Below the pieces are notes generated by a model. It ran no database searches and was not told where the DNA came from. It was given only the letters and a program-made list of their open reading frames with translations. Shown here piece after piece: positions 513 to 17,431 of a stretch of 22,449 nt of DNA. The stretch lies in the IMG/VR virus record IMGVR_UViG_3300023278_003082, positions 1-22,449 of that record; one strand, given 5' to 3'. Numbering within the stretch: position 1 is the stretch's first letter; the number at the start of each line of letters is the position of its first letter. This DNA comes from a virus. A program made the position numbers and the translations under genes.

Positions 513-1280
513 ATGTTTGGACAAAATCAAATCAAGAAGCAGGACAAGTCAGATGGTCAGCTTCTAGATATCAAAGAGATCTTCTTCACGCTGCAGGGAG
601 AGGGTCCCCATGTGGGTCAACCGTCAGTCTTCATCAGACTCGCGGGCTGCAACTTGAAGTGCCACTTTTGTGACACGATGTTCGACGTCGACACGACGCT
701 GATGGATGTCCGGTCTATCGTCGACCAAGTCAAGTGGTATGGAGACAATTTCGACCTCGTAGTGTTGACTGGTGGTGAACCATTCCGTCAAAACTTCATC
801 CCGCTAGTCGAAGTGCTCAATCACAATGGTTACCGAGTTCAAGTAGAAACGGCTGGGACGTTGTGGCTGGCCGACGCTCTTAGGCAATTTCGGCCGGGTA
901 ATGACCCGTCAAAGAGGAATACTATTGTGTGCAGCCCGAAGACGGGCTCTCTCAACCCAGCAATAGTCCCCTACATAGACGCGTACAAATACATCATCAA
1001 CGAAGAGGATTATTCTGTCGACGTAGGCGATGATGGGTTGCCTGTGATGTCGACTCAGGTTCCGGGCGAACGGTTGAAGTTGGCTCGCCCCCATCCATCA
1101 TTCCCGCGTGCGAAGATCTATCTTCAGCCCTGCTTTCACTATCTTGATTATACAGATGATTGTGATTACGTAGCGGATGAAGAGAAGAATTCAACTAACC
1201 GAGAGCTAGCGACAAGCCTTGCGTTGATGCATGGCTACACGCTCTGCCTACAAGTTCACAAACTCGTAGGGCTCCCCTAA
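513..1280 (+). CDS. queE: 7-carboxy-7-deazaguanine synthase (radical SAM)
   Basis: This 255-residue protein matches QueE, which converts 6-carboxytetrahydropterin to 7-carboxy-7-deazaguanine, an intermediate of preQ0, queuosine and deazaguanine DNA modifications. The N-terminal signature EIFFTLQGEGP (22-32) leads into RLAGCNLKCHFCDT, with the radical-SAM 4Fe-4S cysteines in CX3CX2C spacing at C46, C50 and C53. TGGEP (86-90) contributes to SAM binding, and the end LQVHKLVGLP is the usual QueE C-terminus. Length is near family size with an extra charged N-terminus of about 18 residues. ATG 513 is the only suitable start but has no SD within normal distance. The stop overlaps tail to tail with the minus-strand gene ending at 1277. 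No other pathway gene (folE, queD, queC) is present here, so its role in genome modification is inferred. Confidence 0.93.
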   Translation: MFGQNQIKKQDKSDGQLLDIKEIFFTLQGEGPHVGQPSVFIRLAGCNLKCHFCDTMFDVDTTLMDVRSIVDQVKWYGDNFDLVVLTGGEPFRQNFIPLVEVLNHNGYRVQVETAGTLWLADALRQFRPGNDPSKRNTIVCSPKTGSLNPAIVPYIDAYKYIINEEDYSVDVGDDGLPVMSTQVPGERLKLARPHPSFPRAKIYLQPCFHYLDYTDDCDYVADEEKNSTNRELATSLALMHGYTLCLQVHKLVGLP

Positions 1281-2491: not shown

Positions 2492-3232
2492 CTAGTCATC
2501 GACAAGTACAAGAGTGAATGTGGCAGCTACGCCAAGATTATCTGTATCTGTATTCGCTCGAACCCTGACTCTAGTTTTCGCAGGAAGGCTGAGATACGAA
2601 AGCTGATTCACATGATGAGGTGATCCCTGATCAATTTGAACAGCGTCGCGGATACGCCAACCAATGCCATCTGCGTGTGTCATCAGCTGAAATTCAACTT
2701 CAGCTGCTGTACCGTTTGTGAGCGATACGCTCCAATCAACTAAGTATCCCGTCTTCGCGTTAGGAATCTGATACAAAGCTCCCTGCTGCTGTCCATAACC
2801 CGCAGCCATTCTATGCAATTCAGCACCCGCACTTTGAATCAGGATATCAACATCGCCATCATTTGTTTCAATCGAACCCGTGGTCAGTAGAATGATTTCA
2901 TCGATGAAGATGTATGTATTCGACAGATTGACTTCAGTCGTCCCATTGAGCGAGACTGACTCAGTCTGAGCGTCATACGAAGAGTCGAGTCCGTTGATCG
3001 TCAGCGTTCTTGCACCCGTACCCGCAGTGTTCGTATCATTGACGCTCGAAGATACTGCTGCAAGTGATTGAGCAGACGTGTACCAGTTTGCATCGCCGCC
3101 GAACGCCCAAACATCCTCATCAGTAGCGTTATCAACATCAAGGTTGATTCCCGCTCTTCGAATGAGTGTATGCTTAGGGACATTCCCCTTCGCAACCTCA
3201 AGAAAGAAATCTCTACCTGGCAAGAAGGTCAT
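2492..3232 (-). CDS. Beta-rich virion protein, probable tail appendage
   Basis: This 246-residue protein starts at ATG 3232, seven bases after GGAG. The N-terminus (RDFFLEVAKGNVPKHTLIRR) followed by a Thr/Ser/Asn-rich region with GARTLTINGLD and SVSLNGTTEVNL resembles uncharacterised structural proteins often seen in aquatic phages. The rest is predicted beta strand with few cysteines or charges, and there is no signal peptide or enzyme motif. It is the last gene of the tail-tip and fibre block, following the DUF2793 protein, so a role as tail fibre, receptor-binding or decorating protein is likely. The exact role is unknown, and the family match is from memory of sequence style, not a search. 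Confidence 0.6.
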   Translation of the reverse strand: MTFLPGRDFFLEVAKGNVPKHTLIRRAGINLDVDNATDEDVWAFGGDANWYTSAQSLAAVSSSVNDTNTAGTGARTLTINGLDSSYDAQTESVSLNGTTEVNLSNTYIFIDEIILLTTGSIETNDGDVDILIQSAGAELHRMAAGYGQQQGALYQIPNAKTGYLVDWSVSLTNGTAAEVEFQLMTHADGIGWRIRDAVQIDQGSPHHVNQLSYLSLPAKTRVRVRANTDTDNLGVAATFTLVLVDD

Positions 3233-3244
3233 TGAAAGTCTCCA

Positions 3245-3904
3245 CTAGATAATCCACCACTCAGTTCCATCGCAAGATACTGTTAGGCAGTCGTACTGAC
3301 TGATGATATTGACGGTCAGGTTCCCATCAATTGTCTCTGATCCGTTCCCGTCGATAATGACATCGTTCGCTGAAGCATCTTTTCGCTTGAGTTTGAACGT
3401 TTGGCCCGACGAAGAAGCTACGACAGGTAAGGTCACAGTCACATCGCCACTAGTGCAGTCGATTGTATGGGCGTCAGCCGTAGCGTGCACGGCGCTGAAG
3501 CTGGCAGTCTTGTTTGACCAGGTTAGGGTCTGGGCAGCCGAACCCCCTCCGAGCGGGTCAGAGGCCCAGCTTGAGCCATTGAACTGACTGTGTACCGCTT
3601 CATCTACAATGAACGCACGCCATCCATTTGAGGGCGTAAAGAATTGCCACCCGTTTCCATCGTAGTAAGCAATATCATCTTCTTTGCCCGCCCAATCTCC
3701 CGTCGCGGTTGCAGCAGGAATATAGACATCGCCGTCAGAAGGAGAACCTGGGGGCGCAGTTAGGTTGCGATCAATCACATTTGACTGAATCAACGCATCA
3801 AACGCAACGATGTGATTGTTCATACGGGTTATCTGACCCGTAGAGTTCTCATCAATCTTAGCGACGCCAGTATTCGGTGCGGTTTGAGGAGCAATCTGTG
3901 CCAT
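3245..3904 (-). CDS. DUF2793 fibre-type protein with C-terminal beta domain
   Basis: This is a 219-residue protein. Residues about 43-115 match DUF2793: PPGSPSDGDVYIPAATATGDW, then AYYDGNGWQFFTPSNGWRAF, the pattern seen at the end of tail modules in GTA-like prophages. Residues about 128-219 form a small beta domain (DVTVTLP, then GQTFKLKRKD, DVIIDGNGSETIDG, ending DGTEWWII), a layout that recurs in the two proteins around the distal tail gene. The start at 3904 follows the previous gene's TGA by only a few bases and has a weak SD, suggesting coupling. It is likely a tail fibre or fibre-attachment protein; DUF2793 has no established biochemical function that I know of. Confidence 0.75.
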   Translation of the reverse strand: MAQIAPQTAPNTGVAKIDENSTGQITRMNNHIVAFDALIQSNVIDRNLTAPPGSPSDGDVYIPAATATGDWAGKEDDIAYYDGNGWQFFTPSNGWRAFIVDEAVHSQFNGSSWASDPLGGGSAAQTLTWSNKTASFSAVHATADAHTIDCTSGDVTVTLPVVASSSGQTFKLKRKDASANDVIIDGNGSETIDGNLTVNIISQYDCLTVSCDGTEWWII

Positions 3905-3907
3905 GAT

Positions 3908-6900
3908 TCAATTGATTGTGATTTCTACCGCCGGACCTTCATGGAAATATTGCGTCTGATGCACAATTTCAAACGTGATGGGATCGCCGGGAGTAAATGA
4001 ATCACCTACTTGCATCGAATTGGTGTAGGTAATTGATCGTGTATATCCCGGACCCCACTGTGTCTTCACTGTACTACTTCCCGGACCAGCAAGCGCTCGA
4101 ACGAAGTAACCTTCGACCGATGACTTATTAGCCCGCTCGTGCAAAGGCTCCCCTTGGTCTACAGGAGATCTAGTCATCCTCGTTTGACGTTCCCATTTCA
4201 GCGTAATTGCATTATCAGCGGCTCGAGTACCCGTAACGTTATTCACCTTATACGGGCGACACGTTCTACAGGTCATAGGAATAAAGACATCATTGCCCGT
4301 TCCATTAGACTCGACTACATCAACAAGCTCTAAATCCTGTCCATACGCCGCCAACTTCCAATAGCGTACTTCATCTGCTGACGTCAGGTTGAGAGGAATG
4401 AAATCAATGCCTGGTCCATCAAGCCATACTACGCGCTCTCGAATAGAGTGTAGTTCGATTTGGTCCCATGTATCTTTCAGGCCGCGAAGTAGGTTAGTAA
4501 GCTCATAGGTAGCCATTCCCTCAACGCTTGTAGATACAAGTGTGGCTGTCTGTACGCCAATAATCTCTTCGCCAACAAGGAATCGATTACTCCCTCTATA
4601 GAGCAGATCTTCTGTAACCGATTCAAGCGTTGCGCCTTTGTTGATTAGCGTAACTCTAATCGTAGAACGTCGATCAATTGAGTAAGTATGGGCATCGAGT
4701 ACAGGGGCCATCGACGTGGTTCCCATAATCGCTTCTTCTGCAACTGAAGCAATCGCTGTGTACCCAGATACATCTTGATGGCTCATATAGAGCACGCCTC
4801 CTGCCCAATCTCTATTTTGGTCAGCAGAACATGCAGCTAGGTAGAAACCCGGCATGTTGACGTGGCTATCTTGGAGAGGATTGAGATCTAGCAGCTCCCA
4901 CCGAATATTGCCCGGCGATGATACAGCGCGTGATGCTTGGTTGTTTTTACGAATCCCTCCTTGTAGCGGCGGACCGCCTCCTCCTTGTCCTGTCGATCCA
5001 AGCAAACCAATCGCCCCTTCTGAAAGTGCGGTCTGGGTTAGAGCCGTAACATCCTCTTCAACTCCTTCACACAGAAGCAAACCGTCTGTAGTCTCTTCAA
5101 CTCGATTGACTAGAATCTCCCAGTCACGACCGAAAGTATCATCAATCTGCGCGACATAGCCCTCATGAATTCTTCCTAACCAGGTCGGGGGTAATTGAAA
5201 TGAAATCGTATGTTGCGAAACACGAGACTGCGCCCAAAGTGTATCAGCTAGTTGCTGACCCTGGTCAGCGGTGATTACCACCTCTCCTAGCTCAACATTT
5301 GAAATGTCACCTTCGATACCAAAGTTCTCCGACTCTTGAGTTGAAGTCTGGAATCCTTGATCTGGATCCTTATGTTTGACTGACACTCGAGCGACCTTCA
5401 AGGCATTAGGAGCATCTTTGATTGTGAACGGCCTTGCCCGATCATCTCCTATCGTGCCAGCAGTGATGTCCGCTGTAATATTTACGCGAGGCAGACTTGC
5501 ACGATCTTGGAAGTAGATGATTCCATCTTCTTGTCGAGCTACAGTCTGAGTCGCAAGCAGAATCGGTTGTAGTTGCGTTCTTAGATTCTGTGCACCGCGA
5601 ACAGCATATCCTGTAATTGCTTTAGTGCAACCACTGACATCAAACTGCGATGTATTATAGCCCGCAACCAGCATAATCTCAGTGATAATACCACTGACAT
5701 CACCACTTCCATCGACGCGAAGTATCGCTTCAAAACCAGGAACTCGGTTGCCAAAATCAGTCAGTTCTAGATTTTCAAAGAAAGCTACAACCTTGAGACG
5801 GAAACCAGGAACATTCCCTGAACCCCCTACAGCAGCAGTCTCAAGTTCAGAGAGAACAGGATCAGGTCCTTGCGTTGAAGTGCCGATATAGGTTCTAATC
5901 GCTTCAACTTGTGTAATCGACCACTGAGATTGCTCTTGTTGAATTCTAATCGCTTGACCCGCGTGACTGCCGCTGAATACGAATCTAGGAAATCCTCCAC
6001 GTCCCCTAATCAATTTCATTCTTGATGTGTTTGTGGCTTCATCCCAAGAAGTTCCATGATTCAAGTAAGGCTGTAATTGAGCGCCTGATGGTCCATCATT
6101 GATCTCAGTTGTATGATGCGTCGCTGACGTAGCAGTCCCGGCACCGATGTTGCCTTGAACAGCAGGTTGGACATAAACCTTATGCACATCAGGATTGCCG
6201 CCGGTCCCTGTGAATTCAATATCAAGAGAATCACCCTCGTCATCCCCAATAACTTGAAGGGTGCCGAACGCATACCCTAGAACCCCAAGTGTGTCGCCGA
6301 TGAACAAAGTCCCAGTCTCTTGAGATGTTAGCATGAGGAATTGATCCCCATCGACTGCGGCTACATCTACCGTTATATCGTTGACATCATGTGCAGTCGT
6401 TGAGAAACCTGTTACTGCGACTAGCCGCGCCTTGAGTCGCGTAAGATCATATCCAGATGAGACAAGAACTAGATATGCACCAAGTACGCCCAGTCGAGAC
6501 GAAATCGTCTCTACTGTCGCAGCAACTGTAGTCTCTGTAAAATCAACATTATCTTGCTCATCAAAGATAGGCTTCCCATCAGCATAGATTCTTTCGATCG
6601 AACCAATCGGCTTATTCAGGTCGCGAACTGCGAACTCAAGCGCAGCGCTGACTGAATAGGTGTAACTGATGTATGTTCCTCCTGACCCGCCTTTGCCCCC
6701 ACCCCTATCTCTATGCCTCGTCTCTGACAGACGAGTTTGCCAAATCACAGTGCCAGGTACACGCACTCGATCTCCGTAGACACGCCATGTAGGTGTACCC
6801 TGCCTCACTCCTCCAATGTCAAGGTCACCAACCTTCGTCCCCTCTTGCGGATCAGGGGCGAAGATCTTTCCCATAATCAGCGAGTCTACGTATGTCGCTG

Positions 6901-6982
6901 CTACTGTGAGGACGATTTGAGTGGCGGCGCCAATTTCGATTGCACCCGATCCGACTGCCGCAGCTAGAGCAATTGTCGCCAT
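3908..6982 (-). CDS. Central tail tip protein, GTA gp15-like
   Basis: The start is set at ATG 6982 (MATIALAAAV), nine bases after AAGGAGG, rather than the ATG 33 bases upstream, giving 1024 residues. After a hydrophobic N-terminus come YGDRVRVPGTVIW (69-81), a Gly-rich loop (93-102) and YTYSVSAALEFAV (107-119), then SIERIYADGKPIF. This is the N-terminal pattern of GTA gp15-type tip proteins (Phage-tail_3 group). The last 115 residues (from PYKVNNVTGT) include a fibronectin-like domain with LKWERQTR. In the R. capsulatus GTA the equivalent closes the tail and contacts the cell. The GTA TIM-barrel domain is not evident. It follows the peptidase gene, the standard order. It likely forms a trimer at the tip and takes part in adsorption. 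Confidence 0.85.
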   Translation of the reverse strand: MATIALAAAVGSGAIEIGAATQIVLTVAATYVDSLIMGKIFAPDPQEGTKVGDLDIGGVRQGTPTWRVYGDRVRVPGTVIWQTRLSETRHRDRGGGKGGSGGTYISYTYSVSAALEFAVRDLNKPIGSIERIYADGKPIFDEQDNVDFTETTVAATVETISSRLGVLGAYLVLVSSGYDLTRLKARLVAVTGFSTTAHDVNDITVDVAAVDGDQFLMLTSQETGTLFIGDTLGVLGYAFGTLQVIGDDEGDSLDIEFTGTGGNPDVHKVYVQPAVQGNIGAGTATSATHHTTEINDGPSGAQLQPYLNHGTSWDEATNTSRMKLIRGRGGFPRFVFSGSHAGQAIRIQQEQSQWSITQVEAIRTYIGTSTQGPDPVLSELETAAVGGSGNVPGFRLKVVAFFENLELTDFGNRVPGFEAILRVDGSGDVSGIITEIMLVAGYNTSQFDVSGCTKAITGYAVRGAQNLRTQLQPILLATQTVARQEDGIIYFQDRASLPRVNITADITAGTIGDDRARPFTIKDAPNALKVARVSVKHKDPDQGFQTSTQESENFGIEGDISNVELGEVVITADQGQQLADTLWAQSRVSQHTISFQLPPTWLGRIHEGYVAQIDDTFGRDWEILVNRVEETTDGLLLCEGVEEDVTALTQTALSEGAIGLLGSTGQGGGGPPLQGGIRKNNQASRAVSSPGNIRWELLDLNPLQDSHVNMPGFYLAACSADQNRDWAGGVLYMSHQDVSGYTAIASVAEEAIMGTTSMAPVLDAHTYSIDRRSTIRVTLINKGATLESVTEDLLYRGSNRFLVGEEIIGVQTATLVSTSVEGMATYELTNLLRGLKDTWDQIELHSIRERVVWLDGPGIDFIPLNLTSADEVRYWKLAAYGQDLELVDVVESNGTGNDVFIPMTCRTCRPYKVNNVTGTRAADNAITLKWERQTRMTRSPVDQGEPLHERANKSSVEGYFVRALAGPGSSTVKTQWGPGYTRSITYTNSMQVGDSFTPGDPITFEIVHQTQYFHEGPAVEITIN

Positions 6983-6983
6983 A

Positions 6984-7421
6984 TCAACAAGCCTCCTTGT
7001 GACGCCAGTATGCAACTACGCGCTTCTGCCAGAAGGGTTGGTCGAAAGATTCTACGCGAACCTGGCCTCCCTTGCGCGTCCCTAACGCATGGATAAGTGA
7101 ATTCGTTGTACCATCATAGATTGAGATATGCTGAGGCTTACCTCGATGGCTCATCCAGAATTCAATCATGTCACCCGATTGGAGTGTATCAACCTTGACT
7201 ACGTTAGGCGAATCAGAAAGCAGATTATGTAGCGTACCATCAGTTTCGCGCGCATAGTCAGTCCGATCTTCTACTTCGAGACCTAACGTGTCGCAGATTA
7301 GCTTGACCATCCCTGCGCAGTCACATCCACCAGAAGGACCTCCTAGCCGCCCTTGATGCACGAAAGGAGTATCTACAAGCAAACGAGCTTCTAACACAAT
7401 CTTATCGCCTAATCGACTCAT
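6984..7421 (-). CDS. NlpC/P60-family tail tip peptidase
   Basis: This 145-residue protein belongs to the NlpC/P60 papain-like peptidases, which cut peptide stems of peptidoglycan. GGCDCAGMV places the catalytic Cys at residue 35; the catalytic His is probably H98 in QHISIY, and H111 (LIHAL) is the likely third polar residue. The size matches GTA gp14-type tail peptidases, with no signal peptide, as expected for a virion component that locally opens the cell wall during DNA entry. It starts by an ATGA overlap with the hub gene and ends two bases before the gp15-like gene, preserving the gp13-gp14-gp15 order. Confidence 0.9.
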   Translation of the reverse strand: MSRLGDKIVLEARLLVDTPFVHQGRLGGPSGGCDCAGMVKLICDTLGLEVEDRTDYARETDGTLHNLLSDSPNVVKVDTLQSGDMIEFWMSHRGKPQHISIYDGTTNSLIHALGTRKGGQVRVESFDQPFWQKRVVAYWRHKEAC

Positions 7422-10400
7422 CGCGTTGGAGTCTCCAATCCGGTATCCGTGTTAGGCACAAAGGCGCGGCCTCCATGCTGCGGTCCGTTTGTCCACTTAG
7501 TGATACAGTCGCGGATCAATGCCTTTCTGCAACCAGGAATCAGATCGAAAGTATCGCCTGCAACGATAGGAACAGGCGTAGCTTCATCTAAGAAGATGAC
7601 ATCAGAAATGAAGGTCTTGATTCTAAATGACAATCCTGTGAGGTTCCCAGTCTTGAAGGTCAACAATCCTCGCCCGTAATAATCATCGACCGCAGTAGGA
7701 ACTGAAGACGTGAATTCTCTACGATCTAGTCCCGAAGTCACAACCGACACTGATAGTGCAATTTGTGTGATTGGTGCGAGGTCAACGCCGCATTCAGGCG
7801 AACCAAAAGTCAGTCCGCATGACACAGTGATAGCTTCGCCTACTTTGCGGTCCATTACATGCGTAGGACCTACGAGGTCACCTTTCCACTTTTCACTATC
7901 AAAGGTCGTGTCTGCAAGCGTGTATTGGTGCATCACGATAGGATCAGTCCACGGAACGCGGTGATCGATTTCAAAGATACGAACTTCAGCCCCGCGAAAG
8001 CGTCCGGCAACCAAATCATCATCAGTGATACGATCTGATGTAATAGCACCTTGAACCTCAAGGTTATGCTCAGCTAGACCCGTATCTTGGCGGCGTGTAC
8101 TCGCGCTAAGTCCCGATGCAGGCAAGTAAGTCTGCCCTTCATGAATCAGTGGTTGATTAGCTGATGTGAAGAAGAACGCTAATCCATCAGTTCTAATCAA
8201 TTGATAGCAGACTGCAGTGTAGAGCGCCTCAACCGGATCGGGAGTCGCTTGGCTCTCTACGAAGAAGATACCCTCATGCGCTCCAATATCGAATGGACCG
8301 AACCGCCGCTTTCCTGTAATGTCAGTCGAGAAGATACTGGTATGGTTTGACCCCGCATCAAGTCCGGGGCTCGTCGATGACTGTCTATAGTCGTTGACAG
8401 ATGCATCTTTGTAAAGTGATGCTGCCGTTGTGCTGATTATCGATCCTGTGCCGACCGCAGTAGAATCACTACTGATACAATGGTCGAGGACTTCAGACAT
8501 AGTGATGGTTCCGTCGCCAAGGAAGTCAGAATCATCTGAATCAGTAGCAATACATCCCGAAATTTGAATGCGCGCGCAATTATCCTCAATCGTGAAACCG
8601 CGCGCTGCTGACGGAGATCCTTTTATTGAATGCGCGATACAATGCAGCAGCTTGATATTAGTTGACGCACGCGCAAGTCGAAATCCTTGTGTGACTCCTT
8701 GTGCGCTTGTGTTCGATCCCCGCACCAGACAATTGATGTAGGTATTGCCTGTTCCCCGATTGTCGAAACCATACATGAGGTCGGCTGAGCCTCCTGTATG
8801 TGCTACTGAGACTGAATCCATGAAACAGTCACTTGCAAGAACCTTTATGCCGAAACGCTTTTGTGCGCCCCCGTAAATCAAGATGACTCCAAGCCCTGTC
8901 AGCCGCGTGTAGTCAGATCCAATCTCTATTAGGGGCGAAAACTGTCCTAACGAAGGGAAGTCAGTCGAGCCTACACCTTGAATCCTAGCACCGCTGAACG
9001 GTCTATAAGCGCTGAAACGCTGCGCAGCGCCATGCGTAATTTCAATATAGCGCAACGCATCAGTATTATGAAAGCGTATCTGGATGACTCCAGACGTAGG
9101 CAGATCAGCGCCGAGCTCGCCCTCAAGCACAGCGATATGCCGTTCATTAGACGCGTAGAGACTATTCGGTACTGCACGCGATAACCATTCTTCAAGCGTA
9201 TCATAATCGCGAACAGGAGGACCATTCGTTACAGAACGAACTCCGGTAGCTCCAATTCTACTCGTGACGACAGTCACCGCTTCTGTGTTGTGAGGCGCGA
9301 ATGAACCTTCGTAAGGACCAATATCCCAACTTCCAATTGACCCGGAGGCGCGAGGATTTCCAGCGAAGTCGTCCGTATCTCCGAACTCAGTTGTCAGCAT
9401 CGTACTGATTTCAGTAGTGTCGACGCCGCCAATATCGGGACTGCCTGCTCCGTCTACAGCAGGGCTCCCAAACTTCAACCTGAAATCATGCTGTCTAGCT
9501 GCAAGCCACAACGACCCGGCTGTGATACTTATCAAGTTCCCGTCATACCCCACACCATTGTTCTGGGGTAAATTGAAATCATCTGCGATGTTATTCTTGA
9601 TATTGAGCGGAAGTCCTGTGTAACTAACGCCGTAGTGCCCTACAGAAATCGTGCCATAGACTTCAGCCGCTGACCCCGATGCTGGCGGCGCGACGAGGAC
9701 CCCGCCTGTACCTGAAACTCCCCGAGAACTATATACAAGACAGTGATATAGACCTCCGCCTTCATACGCAACAAGGTCGAAGAGAAATCCAGTAGCCGTG
9801 CCTCTAAAGTCAGCGGGGCCGCCGATGCTCATGCAGTTGAAGAACTTGTTGTCTGTAGCAACCGGATCTCCCCCAGAGAACTTTCCTATATAGAATCCTA
9901 CATACGAAGCCAGAGATTGATCGTGTCCTCCTTGCTGATTGATCACACAGACGTTCTTGTAGCGGCCGTAGCTCCCCCCGGCCCACACCCCCGCTTTGAT
10001 TGTAGTACCATCAGCAGCATAAGTATCAGTCCCTATGACGCCGATATTCTCCATGTGGAAGTAGGACTCAGTAACCCTAATTCCTCCGTCCTGTCCCGGA
10101 CCTGAACTCCAATTGACAATGATGCGCGCGCCCGTCATCGTAATCGGATCAAACTCATCTCCTGCACGCGCGCGCAAAACACGATGAGCAGTCGCATCTT
10201 GAAACGTCTCGTTCGCGAACATATTCAACGCGCCAGCAGATAGACCCGTTTCATATTCCTCATCATGGAGTTCGCCGATAATACGATCACCAGCGATAGT
10301 CAAGTCGTCGTTATGAGCTGCGATCCAACCTGCGATAGTTTCGAAGTCACCGACATACACATCAGTAGCAGTTAGCTGAGGCTGATATGTTGTTGGATAC

Positions 10401-11005
10401 GAACTCTTCTCGAGCTGAAAACCCCAAATCCAACAATGAGACACTCCTGGAGCCCGTGATGGCTGCATTTCAGCGCGTAAAGTCGTAGAAGCTGTATTGT
10501 CGTAGACAATAGAAAGCCATACGCGCCAAAATCCATTTGCTTCTTTCGAGATACCAACAGGATCACCGGGAGCAACATCCACTAATGAATCAGTACCAAC
10601 AGACCGCCACTTCAACAACGGCATATTGTTGGCAGGATCTACCGTATTCCAGTTTATATTGACTTCAGTTCGAACATCAGGAGACGCCCCTAAATGCACG
10701 AGATCAAACTGAGTCTGCGTAGTCGCAGCTCCAGGCTTGATATACAACGACTGCGTATACGTTTCATTGTTTACTAACTCTGCAGCGAGAACGTCATGAT
10801 AGACGTATCCAAGTCCCCCATCCGTATCATCAATCTTATCAGCAGTCGTTGTTCCATCAGGAGCGAGCGTATCGTTGGTCGTGACGGTGATGGTTCCGCC
10901 AGGACCTTTTGTCCAGTACGCGCCTGAAATAGAAGTATGAAAATCTTCAGTCCAAAACAGCCGATTCCGCCCCGCTTTCGAAATCTGTTGAATAACATCA
11001 GGCAT
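7418..11005 (-). CDS. Tail hub (DUF2163) with N-terminal lectin-like and twin beta-helix modules
   Basis: This is a 1195-residue fusion. Residues about 5-210 form a carbohydrate-binding-like beta sandwich (LAPDGTTTADKI, later GFWRVWLSIVYD). Residues 215-567 and 572-911 are two right-handed beta-helix modules rich in short strands and N/C/G turns (for example NKFFNCMSIGG and NTYINCLVRGS); each closes with a related cap (SPAVDGAG to DIGPYEG, and SPGLDAGS to DIGAHEG). Residues 920-1190 are the GTA gp13-like hub, DUF2163/Phage_BR0599, with C1063/C1072 (CGLTFGSPECGVDL), C1159/C1167 and a GPQHGGRAFVPN end. Usual gp13 proteins are about 300 residues, so roughly 910 residues are added. The hub joins tube and tip; the added part is likely a surface-glycan binder or depolymerase. 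Catalytic residues are not identifiable. Confidence 0.8.
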   Translation of the reverse strand: MPDVIQQISKAGRNRLFWTEDFHTSISGAYWTKGPGGTITVTTNDTLAPDGTTTADKIDDTDGGLGYVYHDVLAAELVNNETYTQSLYIKPGAATTQTQFDLVHLGASPDVRTEVNINWNTVDPANNMPLLKWRSVGTDSLVDVAPGDPVGISKEANGFWRVWLSIVYDNTASTTLRAEMQPSRAPGVSHCWIWGFQLEKSSYPTTYQPQLTATDVYVGDFETIAGWIAAHNDDLTIAGDRIIGELHDEEYETGLSAGALNMFANETFQDATAHRVLRARAGDEFDPITMTGARIIVNWSSGPGQDGGIRVTESYFHMENIGVIGTDTYAADGTTIKAGVWAGGSYGRYKNVCVINQQGGHDQSLASYVGFYIGKFSGGDPVATDNKFFNCMSIGGPADFRGTATGFLFDLVAYEGGGLYHCLVYSSRGVSGTGGVLVAPPASGSAAEVYGTISVGHYGVSYTGLPLNIKNNIADDFNLPQNNGVGYDGNLISITAGSLWLAARQHDFRLKFGSPAVDGAGSPDIGGVDTTEISTMLTTEFGDTDDFAGNPRASGSIGSWDIGPYEGSFAPHNTEAVTVVTSRIGATGVRSVTNGPPVRDYDTLEEWLSRAVPNSLYASNERHIAVLEGELGADLPTSGVIQIRFHNTDALRYIEITHGAAQRFSAYRPFSGARIQGVGSTDFPSLGQFSPLIEIGSDYTRLTGLGVILIYGGAQKRFGIKVLASDCFMDSVSVAHTGGSADLMYGFDNRGTGNTYINCLVRGSNTSAQGVTQGFRLARASTNIKLLHCIAHSIKGSPSAARGFTIEDNCARIQISGCIATDSDDSDFLGDGTITMSEVLDHCISSDSTAVGTGSIISTTAASLYKDASVNDYRQSSTSPGLDAGSNHTSIFSTDITGKRRFGPFDIGAHEGIFFVESQATPDPVEALYTAVCYQLIRTDGLAFFFTSANQPLIHEGQTYLPASGLSASTRRQDTGLAEHNLEVQGAITSDRITDDDLVAGRFRGAEVRIFEIDHRVPWTDPIVMHQYTLADTTFDSEKWKGDLVGPTHVMDRKVGEAITVSCGLTFGSPECGVDLAPITQIALSVSVVTSGLDRREFTSSVPTAVDDYYGRGLLTFKTGNLTGLSFRIKTFISDVIFLDEATPVPIVAGDTFDLIPGCRKALIRDCITKWTNGPQHGGRAFVPNTDTGLETPTR

Positions 11006-11014
11006 GGATTATTC

Positions 11015-11962
11015 TCAGGACGTCCGGTGAGGATAAGTAACGTACATCCACTCACGCTTATCAAGCACCGCAGGAGGACGTGATATTGTATCCCTAAATT
11101 GAAACTCAGTCGCTACGGGAGCTTCTTCAAATTGAAGACTGCCGAAGAAAGTCGAATCTTGATCGAATTGCGGTTGCGATGGAATCAACTCAGCCCGATA
11201 TGACCCTCCTGTCGTCGTACTTAGTGTGACTTGTACACGCCACAATCCAAGAATACTTGAACTTGATGCCCCAGATTCTTCAGCGCCAGGAATACGTTCA
11301 ATTTGATACTGCCCTCCAGCTAAACCAGTATCTGTGAAGAACTCAAACACACCTGTAAGAGGATTGAATCGAAGATCGGATGTTTCAAAGGGAGTTTGTA
11401 GATGTCCTAGAGCGATCCCAGCAGAAGGCGAATCCTTTCCTCGCATGTATGCGGAAAACGTATATTTGGTCTTCGCTGCAACAGCGAAATCATGCCAAAC
11501 TTTATAGCCATTCGCCGGATCATTATCATTGATCCGCTCCATCGTATACGTTCCGTCCGGACCGAACGCAGCATTCTGATCCGCAGTTCCTGTGCCAAAG
11601 AATGAATAATATGAATCAGTCGGTACAATTCGTTCTGGAATTTCGTTCAAGTTCCTAGGAACGTTGATGATACTGAAAAACGCGAGCTGTCCCACTGTCA
11701 GCGCAAAATTGATCTTCTGCGTTCCAGGCGTAGCTACATCAACGATGTTGAATGTATTTCCAGAATCATTGAAGATACCTAGAACGATGCCTCCAGTCTT
11801 CCACGCAGTCGCTGATGATGTCAATGCTGGGAGTACCATCTCAAGACTACCCGCTGTCGCGTTGATATTGAGTAAACGTCCGCGATAATCTAGTGGGTCA
11901 ATATCAGCGCCAGTCGTGATATACTCAGCTCCTCCAAAGTATTCTTCGACTGTGATAGTCAT
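11015..11962 (-). CDS. Tail tip accessory protein with two shared beta domains
   Basis: This 315-residue protein lies between the distal tail and hub genes, where GTA-type modules normally have nothing. Residues about 20-103 (LEMVLPALTS, then GIVLGIFNDSGNTFNIVDV) resemble the C-terminal extension of the upstream DUF2460 protein. Residues 113-290 (AAFGPDGTYTMERINDNDPA, GLWRVQVTLSTTTGGSYRAE) align with the lectin-like N-terminal domain of the downstream hub protein. It starts by TGATG overlap with the preceding gene. A role as an adhesin or structural collar at the tip is likely. It has no enzyme motif or signal peptide. The domain relations are read directly by eye; fold assignment to a carbohydrate-binding type is inference. 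Confidence 0.65.
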   Translation of the reverse strand: MTITVEEYFGGAEYITTGADIDPLDYRGRLLNINATAGSLEMVLPALTSSATAWKTGGIVLGIFNDSGNTFNIVDVATPGTQKINFALTVGQLAFFSIINVPRNLNEIPERIVPTDSYYSFFGTGTADQNAAFGPDGTYTMERINDNDPANGYKVWHDFAVAAKTKYTFSAYMRGKDSPSAGIALGHLQTPFETSDLRFNPLTGVFEFFTDTGLAGGQYQIERIPGAEESGASSSSILGLWRVQVTLSTTTGGSYRAELIPSQPQFDQDSTFFGSLQFEEAPVATEFQFRDTISRPPAVLDKREWMYVTYPHRTS

Positions 11963-12927
11963 CAGGCTGTCGCGCCCCAGACCATGTTGCCGCTAGAATC
12001 TTTGTAGACAAACGTAATCGCTACACCCGTTGTCGAAATAGTCCACAAAGCAGTAGCATCATCAAAAGTACGGAATGTCAATGTACTCGTTCCGTTGTTT
12101 TTGAGGATGTGATACATCGGTCCGCCAGCCAAGAAGGTTGAATCGGGCATCAGGACAGTCGTATCTGTTGATCCAATGAACGATACCGCTCGACCCATAG
12201 CCCAGGTCAGCGCAAACTTGGTTCCGACGTAGGTGACCTCAGAACCGCCTCCATAATATGCGCGGTCGGGCGATACGACATCACCAAGCATCTCGATGAT
12301 AGGAATCTCGCTGATGCTGCCCGTATCATAGTTAGTGAGCGCAGCCGTCAGCGCCTCATCAATCTCTTCGCCGAATTGAACAGGAACGTCGAATTCGAAT
12401 CCTGCGGTGACTGTCTCGCCTGTAATATCACGTCCAGGCGTAAACGTGACAATACCTGTAGTCGTATCTACTGTGTAGTTGCCCGTCTCGTCAGCGAGAT
12501 CAGATGCAAGCAGAACAGTCGACGTCACTGGCTTCTCAATCGCGCGTGTAATTGACTGCGCGCCACTCGTGTACGTCTTGACTAACTGAAAGGTCTGAGG
12601 ACCAGCGCCGCTTCCTGTTCCAATGATCTGATCGTTGTTCGCATGGGCTGAGCGATGGTCGGCAGCAGAGGTGTAGTCTAGCCAATCCTTCCACCGAAAC
12701 CCGTTCACAACGCCTTGACGCCCTTGATAGAACGTCATAACGTCACTGATGTCTTGGAGGTTCCGAATTCCGTAGACAGCGTTATAAGAACGCTTCGCAT
12801 TCGGCCAACGAGCCACCCGCACGGTGTCTCCCGCAGCTCCTTCGATGATCGAAGTGTTGAACCCTAGACCAGCTCGACTGTCTCTGCTGATCCGTTCTGG
12901 AAATCGAGGCGTTTCATGAAATGCCAT
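11962..12927 (-). CDS. Distal tail protein, DUF2460 (GTA gp12-like), with extra C-terminal domain
   Basis: This is a 321-residue protein. Residues about 6-213 match DUF2460: FPERISRDSRAGLGFNTSI near the start, GIRNLQDISDVMTFYQGRQG, GFRWKDWLDY, and the closing region with DVPVQFGEEIDEAL and SISEIPIIEM. In the R. capsulatus GTA the homologue gp12 forms the hexameric distal ring linking tail tube to hub. Residues about 220-321 are an added beta domain (PMYHILKNNGTSTLTFRTFD) not in the usual protein of about 210 residues and similar to a domain in the next gene. The start is ATG 12927, overlapping the tape measure stop as TAATG, with GGAGAG ten bases upstream. Confidence 0.88.
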   Translation of the reverse strand: MAFHETPRFPERISRDSRAGLGFNTSIIEGAAGDTVRVARWPNAKRSYNAVYGIRNLQDISDVMTFYQGRQGVVNGFRWKDWLDYTSAADHRSAHANNDQIIGTGSGAGPQTFQLVKTYTSGAQSITRAIEKPVTSTVLLASDLADETGNYTVDTTTGIVTFTPGRDITGETVTAGFEFDVPVQFGEEIDEALTAALTNYDTGSISEIPIIEMLGDVVSPDRAYYGGGSEVTYVGTKFALTWAMGRAVSFIGSTDTTVLMPDSTFLAGGPMYHILKNNGTSTLTFRTFDDATALWTISTTGVAITFVYKDSSGNMVWGATA

Positions 12928-15900
12928 TACGAGAACGCTCTCCTGCTTGCGTTCCTAAGATCATTTTCAACTTGACGAGTCGACCGCTTGATTTGGCGAT
13001 CTTGACCCCTACCTGAGAAGTTATACGTATTGTGGAATGTGACGTTCGTTCCGCCCCCGGCTGATCCGACGCCTAATCCCCCTCCGGGCAGTCGCGTCAG
13101 AGGCATGATAGCTTCAGGACCAGCCTCTCCTAGCCGACCAATCGTATTACGTCCTACGGGGAAGCTTGTCTCATTATTGAAGACACCTCCGCGTGCAAAC
13201 GATGCTACTCGATTACCATGATTGTAGACGGCTCCGAGCGCGTTACCTTGGGTGCCGAAGCCGTTGAAGGAATCAAAGCCTGCTTGAGAGCTCGGATCAA
13301 CCCCGTTAGCCCCTAGATTCGCTCCTCCTAGCGATCCAAGCAGTACACTGAAGAAACTACCCGCACCTGCATTCCCGCTACTATTGCTGAATTGATTGAA
13401 GAGATCTTTGAAGATAGTCTGGAACAACAACATCCTGACTGATAGATTGATGACATCAGACAGGACGGCCTTCAACACGTTCTTCATCACGTCGCCGAAG
13501 TTCTCTCCTTCAACGATAGCACGTGTGATTCCTTCAGAGAGATTATTGAACGACGACAGCAATCCTGTTGCAAGAAGCTGATTCTCGGCGAAGAACGTAG
13601 CAGCCTCTTGATCAGCAAGAGCTCGTTCTCGTATCTTCTGGATAAGTCGTGCTTCAAGTTCAAGCTGAGCTCTCATAGCAGGCAACTTACGTTGCACTAT
13701 CTGGTCAATCTCCTCGTCAGAATGACCCGCTGCCTTGAGCCGGGATGCCAGCGCCTGCTTTTCAAGTTCAATATGAGCTTCTATCGTTGCGTTTTCTTGT
13801 TGAGCAAGTTCCTTATGGATTTGTCTCGCTCGAGCTAGGTGTTCAGTTGAGGGTGTCAACTGATTCCTCAACGCAAGTTCACGATCAAGAAGGGGGATAA
13901 CAGTCTCAGCAATTGCTGTACGCTGTGCTGCCTCTGCCGCAGCCGCGCGCTCCGCATGCGCCTTATCTCTAACCGCTTGTGCAAGTTTTCGCGTCCTCTC
14001 CAACTCTGCTGCAAGAGCAGGAAGATATGTCTCTACTAGCTTTGTTGCAAAAGCCTTTTTGAGCCCAAAACCTTCAGCTTGAGCAATTAGTGATTCCTTC
14101 AGGATAAGGATTGTTTGCTTGTGGAGTGAATTCTCAATCTTAGTAGCTTCAGTATTCAACTCAGCGCTTCGCGCGAGATTCGCCTTTGAAGGACGGAGCT
14201 GGTTGACTAACGTCAATTCTGCCTCCAAACTCTTCAGATGTGCACTATCAAGCGTGAATATCGCTGATGCTTCTGCTGCCGCTTGCGCTCGACCAGACAA
14301 ATTACCAATCTCTGCATCAATACTCTCACGAAGTTCTTGAGAGAACGAAATATCGGCTATAAGCTTCTTCTGAAAGTCTTCAATGCTGAGTAGTTTTGAT
14401 GCTTCTGAGTACGTGAGTGTTAGATGACCGATTGCTTCTTCTGCAACAGATCTAATGTTAGCCGTACCGAAGATCAACTTCAGTAAACGATCCGAAGCAT
14501 CAATATTTCCTTGTGTGACAATATCATCGTCGCTGAATATTAGAGATTGAAGTAGTCCGGCGCCCGCTAAGCCCCCGGCCGCAAGTTTGAGTCCCGCACC
14601 AACTTGATAGAAATCTTCAATCGCGGTTGTAGTCTTTTCTTTGAAAGCCTTACCGTCCACAGTGTCAAATCGAAATTCAGCTCTAGATGCAATTGTAGCG
14701 AATAGATGCTCAAGCGCAATCACTGGGCCTTGCGCTGCTTCGATTCGTGCAAACTCCGCGATTAGTTGATCCGTCAGCAGAACTCCTAACGAAGCAATTC
14801 CGGCATCAGGAAGGATTGTTGCCGCATCAACAAGACTAAGTAGCGGCTTTTCGTCCGCCTTAGCTAGGGGCTGAGTTGCCTTTCTTTGCAAGACTTTGAT
14901 TTGAGTGTCAAGGTCTTTGAGCGCTTTGATTCTGCGATCAAGCGCATCAACTTGACCAATCTTATCGCTCTTGTTGATAGCTTGCTCAAACAATTCCGCT
15001 GAATGTGCCGCTTCATCTGCAGCAAAAGCAAGGTTAGCGAAAGTCCCAGGCAACGGCTCGAGTGCTTCCTTACGAGCGGAGGCTGCTGCTCTTCTAAGAT
15101 TCTGAATCGTTACGACCAACCCACCAATCGCGATTGCTGCAAGGCCGATAGGTCCAAGCGCAGTTCCGATGGCAGCTAGACGCGCTCCAATCGCCGCGCC
15201 AGAAAGAGCTCTTCCCGCAACGAATGCTGCTTCAGCTATTGAGAGGAGCTTTGCTGAAAGCTTCAACGCAAGGAAAGCCAAAGCGGACGACACCAAGAAT
15301 CTAATCGCAGTTGATAGCGCTCTGATTGTCGCTGTAGTACCATCAACTCGCGCTTCAATCGTGAACAGATCGCGTACAAGCCGGTCAGTGCCAATGATGA
15401 AGCTCTTTAGTGCAGGAAGAACCGTCTCTCCGATTTCAAGCCCGACAGCCCGCAACGAGTTGCCCAATTGCACAGCCTGTTTATTGAGCGATTCAAATGC
15501 TGTTTCAGATTCTTTGAGAGTTGCGTTGTTCTCTTCCGCAGCCCTATCAGTCTCATCAAGAACATCTACAAAGAGGGAGTACCGCTTTGATAGTGTTTTG
15601 ATCGTCTTCGTATCACGAATATTGACCAAATCCAAGTTCTTGAGAGACAGTGAGACTGAATCTCCTTCACGAGATAGTCCACGCAGAACAAGAGCGAATG
15701 CCCTGAACTTATCCTCTTCGAACTTTTGGGCAAAAACTTGGCTATCAAGCTGTGTCAGTCTCTCGAGTTCAGCGAGAGCTACTTTGTTCCCTGTGATGAT
15801 CGCCTCTTGGATCTTATTGAAAGCGCGTCCAAACGCTGACCCTGTCGCCTCCGTTTGAAGTCCTAGTGCCTTTGACGCAGCAGAAAGAGCAACAATTTCT

Positions 15901-16601
15901 TTACTCGCCAAATCAAACTGAACCGTTGATTGAGCAATCCGCGTTGCTAGTCCAACGATTTCAGCTTCAGTCGTCGCAAACTCGTTACCAAGATGAACGA
16001 TGACGTTCGTCAGCTTATCAATATCACTTGCTTTCTCTCCAGACAGCGAAAGAATCCTCGCTAGCTGAAGTGCAGTATCACCTAAATCGCCTGATAGACT
16101 ACTTGCCGCAGATCCTAGTCTCGAAATAGTCTCTGTAAACTTGATTAGATCAGACGCAGACGAAATGCCCAACTGACCGGCCGCTTCTGCGATTCCAAGC
16201 AACGAATCAGTCGCTACCGGGATTCTCAGGGAGAGCGAGACGATTTCAGCGCCGAAGTTAGCCAACCTCTCTTTGACTAACCCTGTCGTCTTTCCTACAG
16301 CGATGAGCCCTTGCTCAAAATCAGCAAACAGATGAATTGTATTAGTTAGAGCACGCAACGATCCAATCACAATTGCGAACGAAGCGATAGCGACAGCAAC
16401 TCGTGTGAATTGATGTACGAGTCCATTTAGAATTCCGCTGAATCCCTTGAACTGCTTCTTCGGCAGAGAATTTCCTGTCGCCTTTCCCGCCTTCTGAGTC
16501 TTCAGTAACTCCTTCTGAACAGCGAGCAACTCAGCCTGTACCCGCTTAGCATCATTCAGTTGAATGACAATATTGAGTTCTGCTAAGCTAGGAGCTGCCA
16601 C
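12927..16601 (-). CDS. Tail tape measure protein
   Basis: This 1224-residue protein directs tail tube length and is expelled during infection. Residues about 90-400 match the TP901-type core (FADFEQGLIAVGKTTGL, GIAEAAGQLGIS, ARILSLSGEKASDIDKLTNV). Hydrophobic stretches at about 66-85 and 435-500 are followed by long coiled coils. The C-terminus carries FARGGVFNNETSFPVGRNTI and GEAGPEAIMPLTRLPGG, the usual tape measure ending. Residues 788-900 and 901-1013 are a gapless 113-residue tandem repeat. The start is GTG 16601, directly after the chaperone T stop, so initiation is probably coupled. By the general rule of about 0.15 nm per residue the tail would be about 180 nm long; this is an estimate only. 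Confidence 0.93.
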   Translation of the reverse strand: MAAPSLAELNIVIQLNDAKRVQAELLAVQKELLKTQKAGKATGNSLPKKQFKGFSGILNGLVHQFTRVAVAIASFAIVIGSLRALTNTIHLFADFEQGLIAVGKTTGLVKERLANFGAEIVSLSLRIPVATDSLLGIAEAAGQLGISSASDLIKFTETISRLGSAASSLSGDLGDTALQLARILSLSGEKASDIDKLTNVIVHLGNEFATTEAEIVGLATRIAQSTVQFDLASKEIVALSAASKALGLQTEATGSAFGRAFNKIQEAIITGNKVALAELERLTQLDSQVFAQKFEEDKFRAFALVLRGLSREGDSVSLSLKNLDLVNIRDTKTIKTLSKRYSLFVDVLDETDRAAEENNATLKESETAFESLNKQAVQLGNSLRAVGLEIGETVLPALKSFIIGTDRLVRDLFTIEARVDGTTATIRALSTAIRFLVSSALAFLALKLSAKLLSIAEAAFVAGRALSGAAIGARLAAIGTALGPIGLAAIAIGGLVVTIQNLRRAAASARKEALEPLPGTFANLAFAADEAAHSAELFEQAINKSDKIGQVDALDRRIKALKDLDTQIKVLQRKATQPLAKADEKPLLSLVDAATILPDAGIASLGVLLTDQLIAEFARIEAAQGPVIALEHLFATIASRAEFRFDTVDGKAFKEKTTTAIEDFYQVGAGLKLAAGGLAGAGLLQSLIFSDDDIVTQGNIDASDRLLKLIFGTANIRSVAEEAIGHLTLTYSEASKLLSIEDFQKKLIADISFSQELRESIDAEIGNLSGRAQAAAEASAIFTLDSAHLKSLEAELTLVNQLRPSKANLARSAELNTEATKIENSLHKQTILILKESLIAQAEGFGLKKAFATKLVETYLPALAAELERTRKLAQAVRDKAHAERAAAAEAAQRTAIAETVIPLLDRELALRNQLTPSTEHLARARQIHKELAQQENATIEAHIELEKQALASRLKAAGHSDEEIDQIVQRKLPAMRAQLELEARLIQKIRERALADQEAATFFAENQLLATGLLSSFNNLSEGITRAIVEGENFGDVMKNVLKAVLSDVINLSVRMLLFQTIFKDLFNQFSNSSGNAGAGSFFSVLLGSLGGANLGANGVDPSSQAGFDSFNGFGTQGNALGAVYNHGNRVASFARGGVFNNETSFPVGRNTIGRLGEAGPEAIMPLTRLPGGGLGVGSAGGGTNVTFHNTYNFSGRGQDRQIKRSTRQVENDLRNASRRAFS

Positions 16602-16987: not shown

Positions 16988-17431
16988 TTACTCCCCCAGG
17001 TTTTCAACTCCCTGCTCAATGAGTTCAGCGACTTGTTCACGCACCCAAGGGAATTGCTCATAAAGCGAGCGTGCGTTCTCATAGTTGCATTCAAGAGGAC
17101 CATCAACGATAATATTTTGCCACTTCGCGGTGACTTTCGCCATCAAGATGATACCATCCATTTCAGTATCTTCGATACGAGGAGTCCGCATCCGGCCCCC
17201 ACGCATACGCTTCTTGACACGCCCGTTCACAAGCTCTCTCTGATGGGTTTCATACTTCTTGGAGTACTTCCCATAGATCCAGATTGCGACCGGCTCATGG
17301 GTTTTGTCGTCTTCTAAGAGTTCCCCATCAGGCCCAGCCAGATGCAGCATCAAAGTAGTATCAGTATCGAAATTGGTGAGATCCATGGCATTGCGTTGCG
17401 GTTTGGATTTAGTCGCTGCTTGCTTCGTCAT
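16988..17431 (-). CDS. Tail assembly chaperone, G-type
   Basis: This 147-residue protein lies between the major tail protein and the tape measure. It has an N-terminal basic leader, a beta-like region (DTTLMLHLAGPDGELLEDD, PVAIWIYGKYSKKYE), a basic loop (KKRMRGGRMRTPR) and a helical C-terminus (ENARSLYEQFPWVREQVAEL). The pattern of substrate-like aspartates plus IWxxGxxSxxY-type wording is usual in tail assembly chaperones of siphoviruses. It starts by TAATG overlap with the tail tube gene. Near its end a G-rich heptamer (GGGGGAG, 16997-16991) precedes the TAA and could support -1 frameshifting into the next ORF. Confidence 0.72.
   Translation of the reverse strand: MTKQAATKSKPQRNAMDLTNFDTDTTLMLHLAGPDGELLEDDKTHEPVAIWIYGKYSKKYETHQRELVNGRVKKRMRGGRMRTPRIEDTEMDGIILMAKVTAKWQNIIVDGPLECNYENARSLYEQFPWVREQVAELIEQGVENLGE
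16991..16997 (-). other. Candidate -1 frameshift site in the chaperone pair
   Basis: Codons CTG GGG GAG TAA end ORF G. The G GGG GAG run can slip by one base, after which the -1 frame reads GTA ATA GAA GAG TTG into ORF T with no stop; the first in-frame stop upstream (TGA) lies just before, so the usable overlap is confined to about eight codons. The P-site GGG re-pairs perfectly and the A-site GAG only partly. The predicted joint is ENLGEVIEELLEYAKK or ENLGGVIEELLEYAKK. Confidence 0.5.

What the first reader, a model, noticed from the sequence alone, without database searches (positions are those of the whole stretch)
7418..11005. Tail hub protein carrying two N-terminal beta-helix modules
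The last 270 residues are a GTA gp13-like DUF2163 hub, but about 910 residues precede it: a lectin-like sandwich and two successive beta-helices with matching Gly/Asp caps (DIGPYEG at 561-567, DIGAHEG at 906-912). Receptor-binding beta-helices are normally separate tailspikes or C-terminal extensions; fusion in front of the hub would place a trimeric spike at the tube-tip junction. The two helices look like an ancient duplication.
Basis: partly seen in the sequence, partly recalled or inferred. Interest (0 to 1): 0.62.

Follow-up and report, generated by a model that had tools for sequence, protein, structure and literature searches.

The report
Phage tail hub carrying fused adhesin modules
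In this uncultured virus the protein that caps the tail tube is made in one piece with a sugar-binding-type domain and two duplicated beta-helix-type modules, an unusually large version of a known habit of phages to hang host-binding parts on their tail hub.

Summary
Window 7418-11005 (-) is one uninterrupted 1195-aa gene. Residues 11-213 match the gene transfer agent (GTA) head-spike-fibre domain (NF048003, E 4e-23). Residues 215-567 and 576-912 are two homologous modules, each ending in a choice-of-anchor-Q cap typical of right-handed beta-helix proteins. Residues 926-1195 are a GTA-type baseplate hub (TIGR02218, E 1e-34), with the four Fe-S cysteines and the usual gene neighbours.

No in-frame start lies near the hub's beginning, so the hub can only be made as the fusion unless cleaved. 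AlphaFold confirmed the hub fold but was inconclusive for the helices: too few homologues. A trimeric spike is not shown.

Hubs of this family decorated with other modules do exist: LamG (Tetraselmis virus S20), a TIM-barrel tail-sheath protein, a weak FN3-like region, and many internal insertions. I found no other beta-helix-hub fusion. The nearest functional parallel is RcGTA TspA, a separate, detachable beta-sandwich plus beta-helix depolymerase, to which I found no sequence relationship by indirect tests.

Verdict: a new variant of a known kind (a decorated hub), known from one metagenomic fragment. Most likely role: three hub-tethered surface-glycan-binding, possibly depolymerising, arms.

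The parts
7418..11005 (-). whole gene: spike-fibre domain + two duplicated beta-helix-type modules + GTA-type hub, 1195 aa
   Evidence: stop overlaps the next gene's ATG by 4 nt, start lies 9 nt after the previous gene's stop
10367..10975 (-). residues 11-213, GTA head-spike-fibre-type beta-sandwich (CBM-like)
   Evidence: NF048003 E 4.1e-23; profile A7 finds Rcc01080 in PDB 6tb9/6tba at 9.5e-31 and E217/Pa193 baseplate proteins at about 3e-14; Foldseek 9b45/8env about 1e-4
9305..10363 (-). residues 215-567, beta-helix-type module 1
   Evidence: homologous to module 2; coil motif [VNHG][CT]x[VAS] at 352, 390, 421, 451
9308..9487 (-). residues 507-566, choice-of-anchor-Q cap of module 1 (DIGPYEG at 561-567)
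   Evidence: NF041518 18.6 bits, E 0.0017, below its cut-off alone; one of two stretches
8270..9280 (-). residues 576-912, beta-helix-type module 2
   Evidence: coil motif at 758, 788, 817, 842; weak Pfam Beta_helix 758-824, E 0.88
8273..8383 (-). residues 875-911, choice-of-anchor-Q cap of module 2 (DIGAHEG at 906-912)
   Evidence: NF041518: whole protein 30 bits E 4.6e-7; cap alone 26.2 bits against cut-off 25
8231..8269 (-). residues 913-925, 13-residue linker between module 2 and hub; no in-frame ATG/GTG/TTG/CTG in residues 880-934
7421..8230 (-). residues 926-1195, GTA-type baseplate hub: attachment domain 926-1075, Fe-S Cys 1063, 1072, 1159, 1167, C-terminal PF09356 1109-1187
   Evidence: invariant Cys in alignment A1; PDB 8gtc_P and 6tba_7A by sequence and by fold
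11015..11962 (-). gene just upstream: 315 aa, second, divergent copy of the spike-fibre domain (residues ~123-286)
   Evidence: NF048003 1.2e-8, 35.7 bits, just under the 36-bit cut-off; 30% identical to residues 37-208 of the hub protein
11962..12927 (-). distal tail protein (gp12/Rcc01695 type, DUF2460) with a C-terminal extension
   Evidence: PF09343 2e-53, TIGR02217 5e-52
6984..7421 (-). NlpC/P60 tail peptidase (gp14 type)
   Evidence: PF00877 5e-11
3908..7015 (-). megatron-type baseplate protein (gp15 type), without a detectable TIM-barrel domain
   Evidence: phrog_4271 1.5e-91; NF048004 partial; PF13550 and PF23666
3245..3904 (-). DUF2793 protein, probable tail fibre, directly after the megatron gene
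   Evidence: PF10983 1.4e-24; phrog_7049 tail fibre 2.5e-19

Best explanation
The gene encodes the trimeric baseplate hub of a siphophage with a GTA-type tail tip, extended at its N-terminus by a surface-glycan-engaging arm. The C-terminal 270 residues close the tail tube under the distal tail protein and hold an Fe-S cluster, as in RcGTA and phage R4C. Each hub copy carries two tandem, duplicated right-handed beta-helix-type modules ending in an outermost head-spike-fibre-type beta-sandwich. With three hubs per tail, three such arms would radiate from the tube-tip junction and hold the virion to, or locally trim, capsule or matrix polysaccharide while the baseplate finds its receptor and the NlpC peptidase and megatron carry out penetration. 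Shown here: the domain order, the homology of hub, sandwich and caps, the duplication, the operon context, and the lack of an internal start. Inferred from solved relatives: the trimeric hub and its place in the tail. Inferred by analogy only: glycan binding. Open: enzymatic activity, trimerisation of the helices, arm geometry.
For: Domain hits. Hub fold and conserved Cys, matched to published hub domains and Fe-S cluster (PMC7296036, PMC10276861). Spike domain matches Rcc01080; RcGTA head fibres mediate binding to the R. capsulatus capsule (PMC7296036). Duplication: E 5e-8, above all 200 shuffles. Cap homologue in a planctomycete protein that itself matches choice_anch_Q and, weakly, pectate lyase PelN and NosD models. 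Conserved order gp12-hub-NlpC-megatron. Same N-terminal position used by other modules: LamG in S20, NCTSP TIM barrel in L176. Continuous codon usage: residues 1-920 correlate 0.914 with other tail genes. No internal start at residues 880-934.
Against: No structure confirms the beta-helices: AlphaFold gave pLDDT ~20-30 for module 1 and ~25-57 for module 2, and a two-row profile finds no beta-helix in the PDB. Module 1's cap is sub-threshold on its own. The self-repeat test was positive only for module 2 (z 3.1) and negative for module 1. NF048003 also rings in 5 of 14 control genomes, so its name does not prove capsule binding. No second phage with this architecture was found. Host and glycan are unknown.
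Confidence: 0.62

Rival explanations
1. A hub-tethered tailspike depolymerase: the beta-helices form a trimeric, catalytically active spike that digests capsule or biofilm polysaccharide, a covalently attached counterpart of RcGTA TspA.
For: Same domain order as TspA (N-terminal CBM-type beta-sandwich, then right-handed beta-helix; PMC13420450). The hub is trimeric in relatives. The cap homologue L181 weakly matches a pectate lyase model.
Against: No catalytic family hit. No sequence similarity to the longer alphaproteobacterial PF12218-cap beta-helix proteins; outside the hub, P0001 matched only a spike domain in 385 alphaproteobacterial genomes. TspA's own sequence was not at hand. Trimerisation could not be tested.
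Confidence: 0.2
2. The fused region is mainly structural (a collar or sheath around the distal tail) rather than host-binding.
For: In L176 a protein matching the non-contractile tail sheath TIM-barrel family is fused at the same place in front of the hub.
Against: The sandwich is related to a head fibre involved in capsule attachment (PMC7296036), and comparable modules on siphophage baseplate proteins bind host glycans (PMC7291167).
Confidence: 0.1
3. Assembly or annotation artefact: a separate adhesin gene joined to the hub by chimaeric assembly or a lost stop codon.
For: All close-enough relatives have stand-alone hubs. The record is a single IMG/VR fragment with no reads to check.
Against: The same orientation, collinear operon and tight spacing at both ends, in-frame linker, no composition break, and other independent N-terminal fusions at the same site. 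Relatives are only ~30-35% identical, so their separate hub is not informative about this junction.
Confidence: 0.05

Closest known systems
RcGTA hub Rcc01696 (g13) and phage R4C hub (PDB 6tba, 8gtc)
   Same: Homologous hub: sequence E 9e-17 and 8e-19, fold, four Fe-S cysteines, same gene neighbours
   Different: They are 291-296 aa hubs without the ~910-residue N-terminal part
RcGTA head-spike fibre Rcc01080 (GhsB)
   Same: Homologous beta-sandwich domain (profile E 9.5e-31)
   Different: There it sits on the capsid; here it is the N-terminus of a tail hub
RcGTA tailspike TspA (Rcc02623), preprint PMC13420450
   Same: Domain order: CBM-type beta-sandwich then right-handed beta-helix, on a GTA-type baseplate
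   Different: TspA is a separate, detachable trimer bound to tail tube, distal tail protein and megatron; no sequence relation found by indirect tests; the preprint reports no TspA homologue in phages with RcGTA-like baseplates
Tetraselmis viridis virus S20 hub (L009, ORF 3050-4804)
   Same: Carbohydrate-binding-type module N-terminal to the same hub family (LamG PF13385 6.5e-12)
   Different: One LamG domain plus short repeats, 585 aa; no beta-helix
NCTSP-hub fusion in an alphaproteobacterial genome (L176)
   Same: Large module in front of the same hub, 899 aa (PF23845 3e-100, PF23844 2e-35)
   Different: TIM barrel of the non-contractile tail sheath family, not beta-helix
Evolved Dit / evolved Tal of siphophages (PMC7291167)
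   Same: Carbohydrate-binding modules built into baseplate structural proteins
   Different: CBMs sit in loops of Dit or Tal or C-terminal to Tal; here the modules precede the hub and include tandem beta-helix-type parts
Choice-of-anchor-Q right-handed beta-helix proteins (e.g. planctomycete L181)
   Same: C-terminal cap SPAxDAG...DIGAxE
   Different: Cellular proteins; similarity to the phage modules is confined to the cap region

Membership tests
GTA-type baseplate hub (TIGR02218 / PF09931+PF09356) | Score above the curated family cut-off | tested here: met
   TIGR02218 120.4 against 80.5 bits; PF09931 112 against 26, PF09356 43.3 against 22.9
GTA-type baseplate hub (TIGR02218 / PF09931+PF09356) | Four conserved Fe-S cysteines | tested here: met
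   Invariant columns C139, C148, C235, C243 in A1 = residues 1063, 1072, 1159, 1167; role from PMC7296036 and PMC10276861
GTA-type baseplate hub (TIGR02218 / PF09931+PF09356) | Hub fold | tested here: met
   AlphaFold hub domains partly above pLDDT 90; Foldseek 8gtc_P 5.1e-13, 6tba_7A 1e-10
GTA-type baseplate hub (TIGR02218 / PF09931+PF09356) | Gene order distal tail protein - hub - NlpC - megatron | tested here: met
   here with one extra adhesin gene between distal tail protein and hub, as in L001
NF048003 GTA_spike_fiber domain | Score above curated cut-off | tested here: met
   82.8 against 36 bits; Rcc01080 by profile, 9.5e-31
Choice-of-anchor-Q beta-helix (NF041518) | Cap motif above cut-off | tested here: met
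   Met for module 2 (26.2 bits) and the whole protein (30 bits); module 1 alone 18.6, below 25
Choice-of-anchor-Q beta-helix (NF041518) | Right-handed parallel beta-helix fold | tested here: inconclusive
   AlphaFold low confidence with only 2-3 rows covering the modules
RcGTA TspA-type tailspike | Sequence homology to TspA or its PF12218-like cap | tested here: not met
   No PF12218 hit in P0001; no similarity to the longer alphaproteobacterial PF12218-cap proteins; indirect, TspA's own sequence not available
RcGTA TspA-type tailspike | Homotrimer with active site between subunits | not testable with these tools
   No multimer prediction offered; monomer models of the modules are poor
Evolved (decorated) baseplate protein | Carbohydrate-binding-type module in one chain with a baseplate structural protein | tested here: met
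   binding itself not tested

The most novel reading that the evidence does not exclude
Phages with GTA-type baseplates carry their own polysaccharide-degrading spike, built covalently into the hub rather than as a detachable protein like TspA, so that matrix digestion is coupled to the protein that gates the tail tube.
Probability: 0.18. Interest if true: 0.66.

Novelty: new variant of a known kind. Interest (0 to 1): 0.42.

Why it matters
Hubs close the tail tube and take part in triggering ejection, so a hub covalently joined to long adhesin arms would link surface binding to the gate without intermediate proteins. A 2026 preprint reports that phages with RcGTA-like baseplates lack the GTA's beta-sandwich/beta-helix spike; this gene is a candidate for a phage solution by fusion, although not a homologue as far as tested. 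It also shows a domain known from a GTA head spike reused on a tail tip, and adds to a pattern of varied modules (LamG, TIM barrel, weak FN3-like, beta-helix type) landing in front of or inside the same hub. It remains one sequence from one fragment.

Tried and rejected
Close relatives by peptide scans of IMG/VR with the whole protein, the hub and each module: none; whole protein in genome contigs: none. An eight-hub alignment was too divergent to scan with; closer alignments worked. A DNA pattern for DIGA[YH]EG in IMG/VR gave 7 loci, none recognisable as a choice-of-anchor-Q cap. Apparent N-terminal extensions in L022, L063, L068, L150, L177 and L182 were rejected as GC-rich out-of-frame read-through. 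Plasmids: no match for module 2. Profile of the two modules against the PDB: only chance hits such as Rab11. AlphaFold of residues 1-575: poor except part of the sandwich. PF12218-cap proteins as TspA stand-ins: no similarity. Literature search for 'choice-of-anchor Q': no paper in the library. I did not find a beta-helix-hub fusion in 50,697 phage records, 385 alphaproteobacterial and 392 planctomycete-phylum genomes, or the IMG/VR loci fetched. These searches are sensitive to the hub but weak for diverged beta-helices, and the IMG/VR scans keep only part of the hits.
Full report
What was checked. The window is a 22,449-base IMG/VR virus fragment. The finding lies in a tail operon on the minus strand: tail tube (17431-18606), tape measure (12927-16601), distal tail protein (11962-12927), a 315-aa adhesin-like gene (11015-11962), the 1195-aa gene of the finding (7418-11005), an NlpC peptidase (6984-7421), a megatron-type protein (3908-7015) and a DUF2793 probable fibre (3245-3904). 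Apart from the extra adhesin gene and the giant hub, this is the gene order of GTA-type baseplates in phages and prophages.

Domain anatomy. Residues 11-213 match NF048003 (GTA_spike_fiber, 82.8 bits against a cut-off of 36). Residues 926-1195 match TIGR02218, PF09931 and PF09356. NF041518 (choice-of-anchor Q) matches twice. Taken separately, the second cap passes the curated cut-off (26.2 bits) and the first does not (18.6 bits). A profile of five spike-type domains finds RcGTA head-spike fibre Rcc01080 in the PDB (E 9.5e-31) and baseplate proteins of phages E217 and Pa193 (about 3e-14). The name of NF048003 should not be over-read: the model also rings in 5 of 14 control genomes, so it describes a widespread CBM-like sandwich.

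The hub is intact. All four cysteines that hold the Fe-S cluster in the RcGTA and R4C hubs are present (1063, 1072, 1159, 1167; PMC7296036, PMC10276861). Its predicted fold matches those hubs (8gtc_P 5e-13, 6tba_7A 1e-10). No ATG, GTG, TTG or CTG occurs in frame in residues 880-934, so a stand-alone hub cannot come from internal initiation near its natural start.

The two middle modules. They are homologous to each other (26% over 193 aa, E 5e-8; 39.7 bits against a maximum of 25.0 in 200 shuffles and 17.3 for the reversed sequence). The beta-helix assignment rests on the caps, on a coil motif recurring at 25-38 residue spacing in both modules (352, 390, 421, 451 and 758, 788, 817, 842), and on cap homology to planctomycete proteins L181 and L198. 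L181 matches choice-of-anchor Q (5.9e-14) and, below their cut-offs, pectate lyase PelN and NosD models. A simple self-repeat test was positive for module 2 (z 3.1, although one of 60 shuffles scored higher) and negative for module 1. AlphaFold did not settle it: with three sequences module 1 had pLDDT about 20-30; with 25 sequences, of which only two cover module 2, that part had about 25-57 with mostly beta strands, while the attachment and oligosaccharide-binding parts of the hub partly exceeded 90.

Artefact test. The gene starts 9 nt after the previous stop and its stop overlaps the next start by 4 nt. G+C is even across the four parts (0.47-0.52), and codon usage of residues 1-920 correlates 0.914 with other tail genes. 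Every relative found has a hub at only about 30-35% identity, so their separate hubs do not speak against this junction. Read mapping was not possible.

How unusual is it? Among 147 hub ORFs from IMG/VR loci and phages (a partly redundant set), normal hubs are about 280-300 aa; 14 carry insertions of 157-415 aa between the attachment and oligosaccharide-binding parts, including LamG in Roseobacter phage DSS3P8. Caulobacter phage phiCbK shows the same split. True N-terminal fusions are rarer: LamG in Tetraselmis virus S20, the non-contractile-tail-sheath TIM barrel in L176, and a weak FN3-like region in L174 (fn3 E 0.005, below cut-off). The slot between the distal tail protein and the hub is also variable: an annotated kelch protein in L001 and a 444-aa ORF in the Pla86 planctomycete locus L150, an unrelated gene set in L096, and here a second spike-fibre-type domain.

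Most likely function. RcGTA head fibres, which carry the same domain type, enable attachment to the host capsule (PMC7296036). Carbohydrate-binding modules on Dit and Tal are an established theme in siphophages, with glycan binding shown for some (PMC7291167). I therefore take the N-terminal part to be a tethered glycan-engaging arm, three per tail if the hub is trimeric as in RcGTA and R4C. Whether it also cleaves glycan is open. The closest functional parallel is TspA of RcGTA, a separate, detachable trimer with an N-terminal beta-sandwich and a right-handed beta-helix that degrades biofilm; its authors found no homologue in phages with RcGTA-like baseplates (PMC13420450).

Verdict. It is a new variant of a known kind: a decorated GTA-type hub, with tandem beta-helix-type modules not seen on a hub elsewhere in these searches. 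Trimeric-spike geometry and enzymatic activity remain inference.

Noticed in passing
L176:1305-4001 (+), alphaproteobacterial genome G169: 899-aa protein: non-contractile tail sheath protein (PF23844 + PF23845 TIM barrel) fused in front of a GTA-type hub.
   Followed up: partly
L183:1464-3479 (-), alphaproteobacterial genome G150: 672-aa protein joining the hub attachment domain to the central and C-terminal parts of megatron, resembling the one-chain T4 gp27 arrangement; PF09356 not detected.
   Followed up: partly
L125, L132, L134-L136, L138-L141, L143, L146, L147, L149, L006, L179: GTA-type hubs with large modules inserted between the attachment and oligosaccharide-binding parts: a recurrent decoration site with varied, mostly unassigned inserts.
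   Followed up: partly
window 11015-11962 (-): Upstream 315-aa gene carries a second, divergent spike-fibre domain; its slot holds an annotated kelch protein in the Manatee Spring phage (L001) and a 444-aa ORF in the Planctomycetes Pla86 locus (L150).
   Followed up: partly
window 3908-7015 (-): Megatron-type protein lacks the ~385-residue peripheral stretch present in L004 and longer relatives (432 to 439 here, 203 to 589 in L004) and has a different ~200-residue stretch at about 155-370. L001's megatron is short as well.
   Followed up: partly
L150 (CP036296.1, Planctomycetes bacterium Pla86): GTA-type tail module with distal tail protein, hub and NlpC genes in a planctomycete chromosome, outside the usual alphaproteobacterial hosts.
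   Followed up: no
window 513-1280 (+): Radical SAM protein (PF04055 3e-10) on the opposite strand; from memory the sequence resembles QueE, which would hint at 7-deazaguanine metabolism or DNA modification; not tested.
   Followed up: no
window 11962-12927 (-), about residues 215-321: Distal tail protein has a ~100-aa C-terminal extension shared in length with L001, L096 and L150 (320-329 aa) and by eye similar to the N-terminus of the next gene's protein.
   Followed up: no
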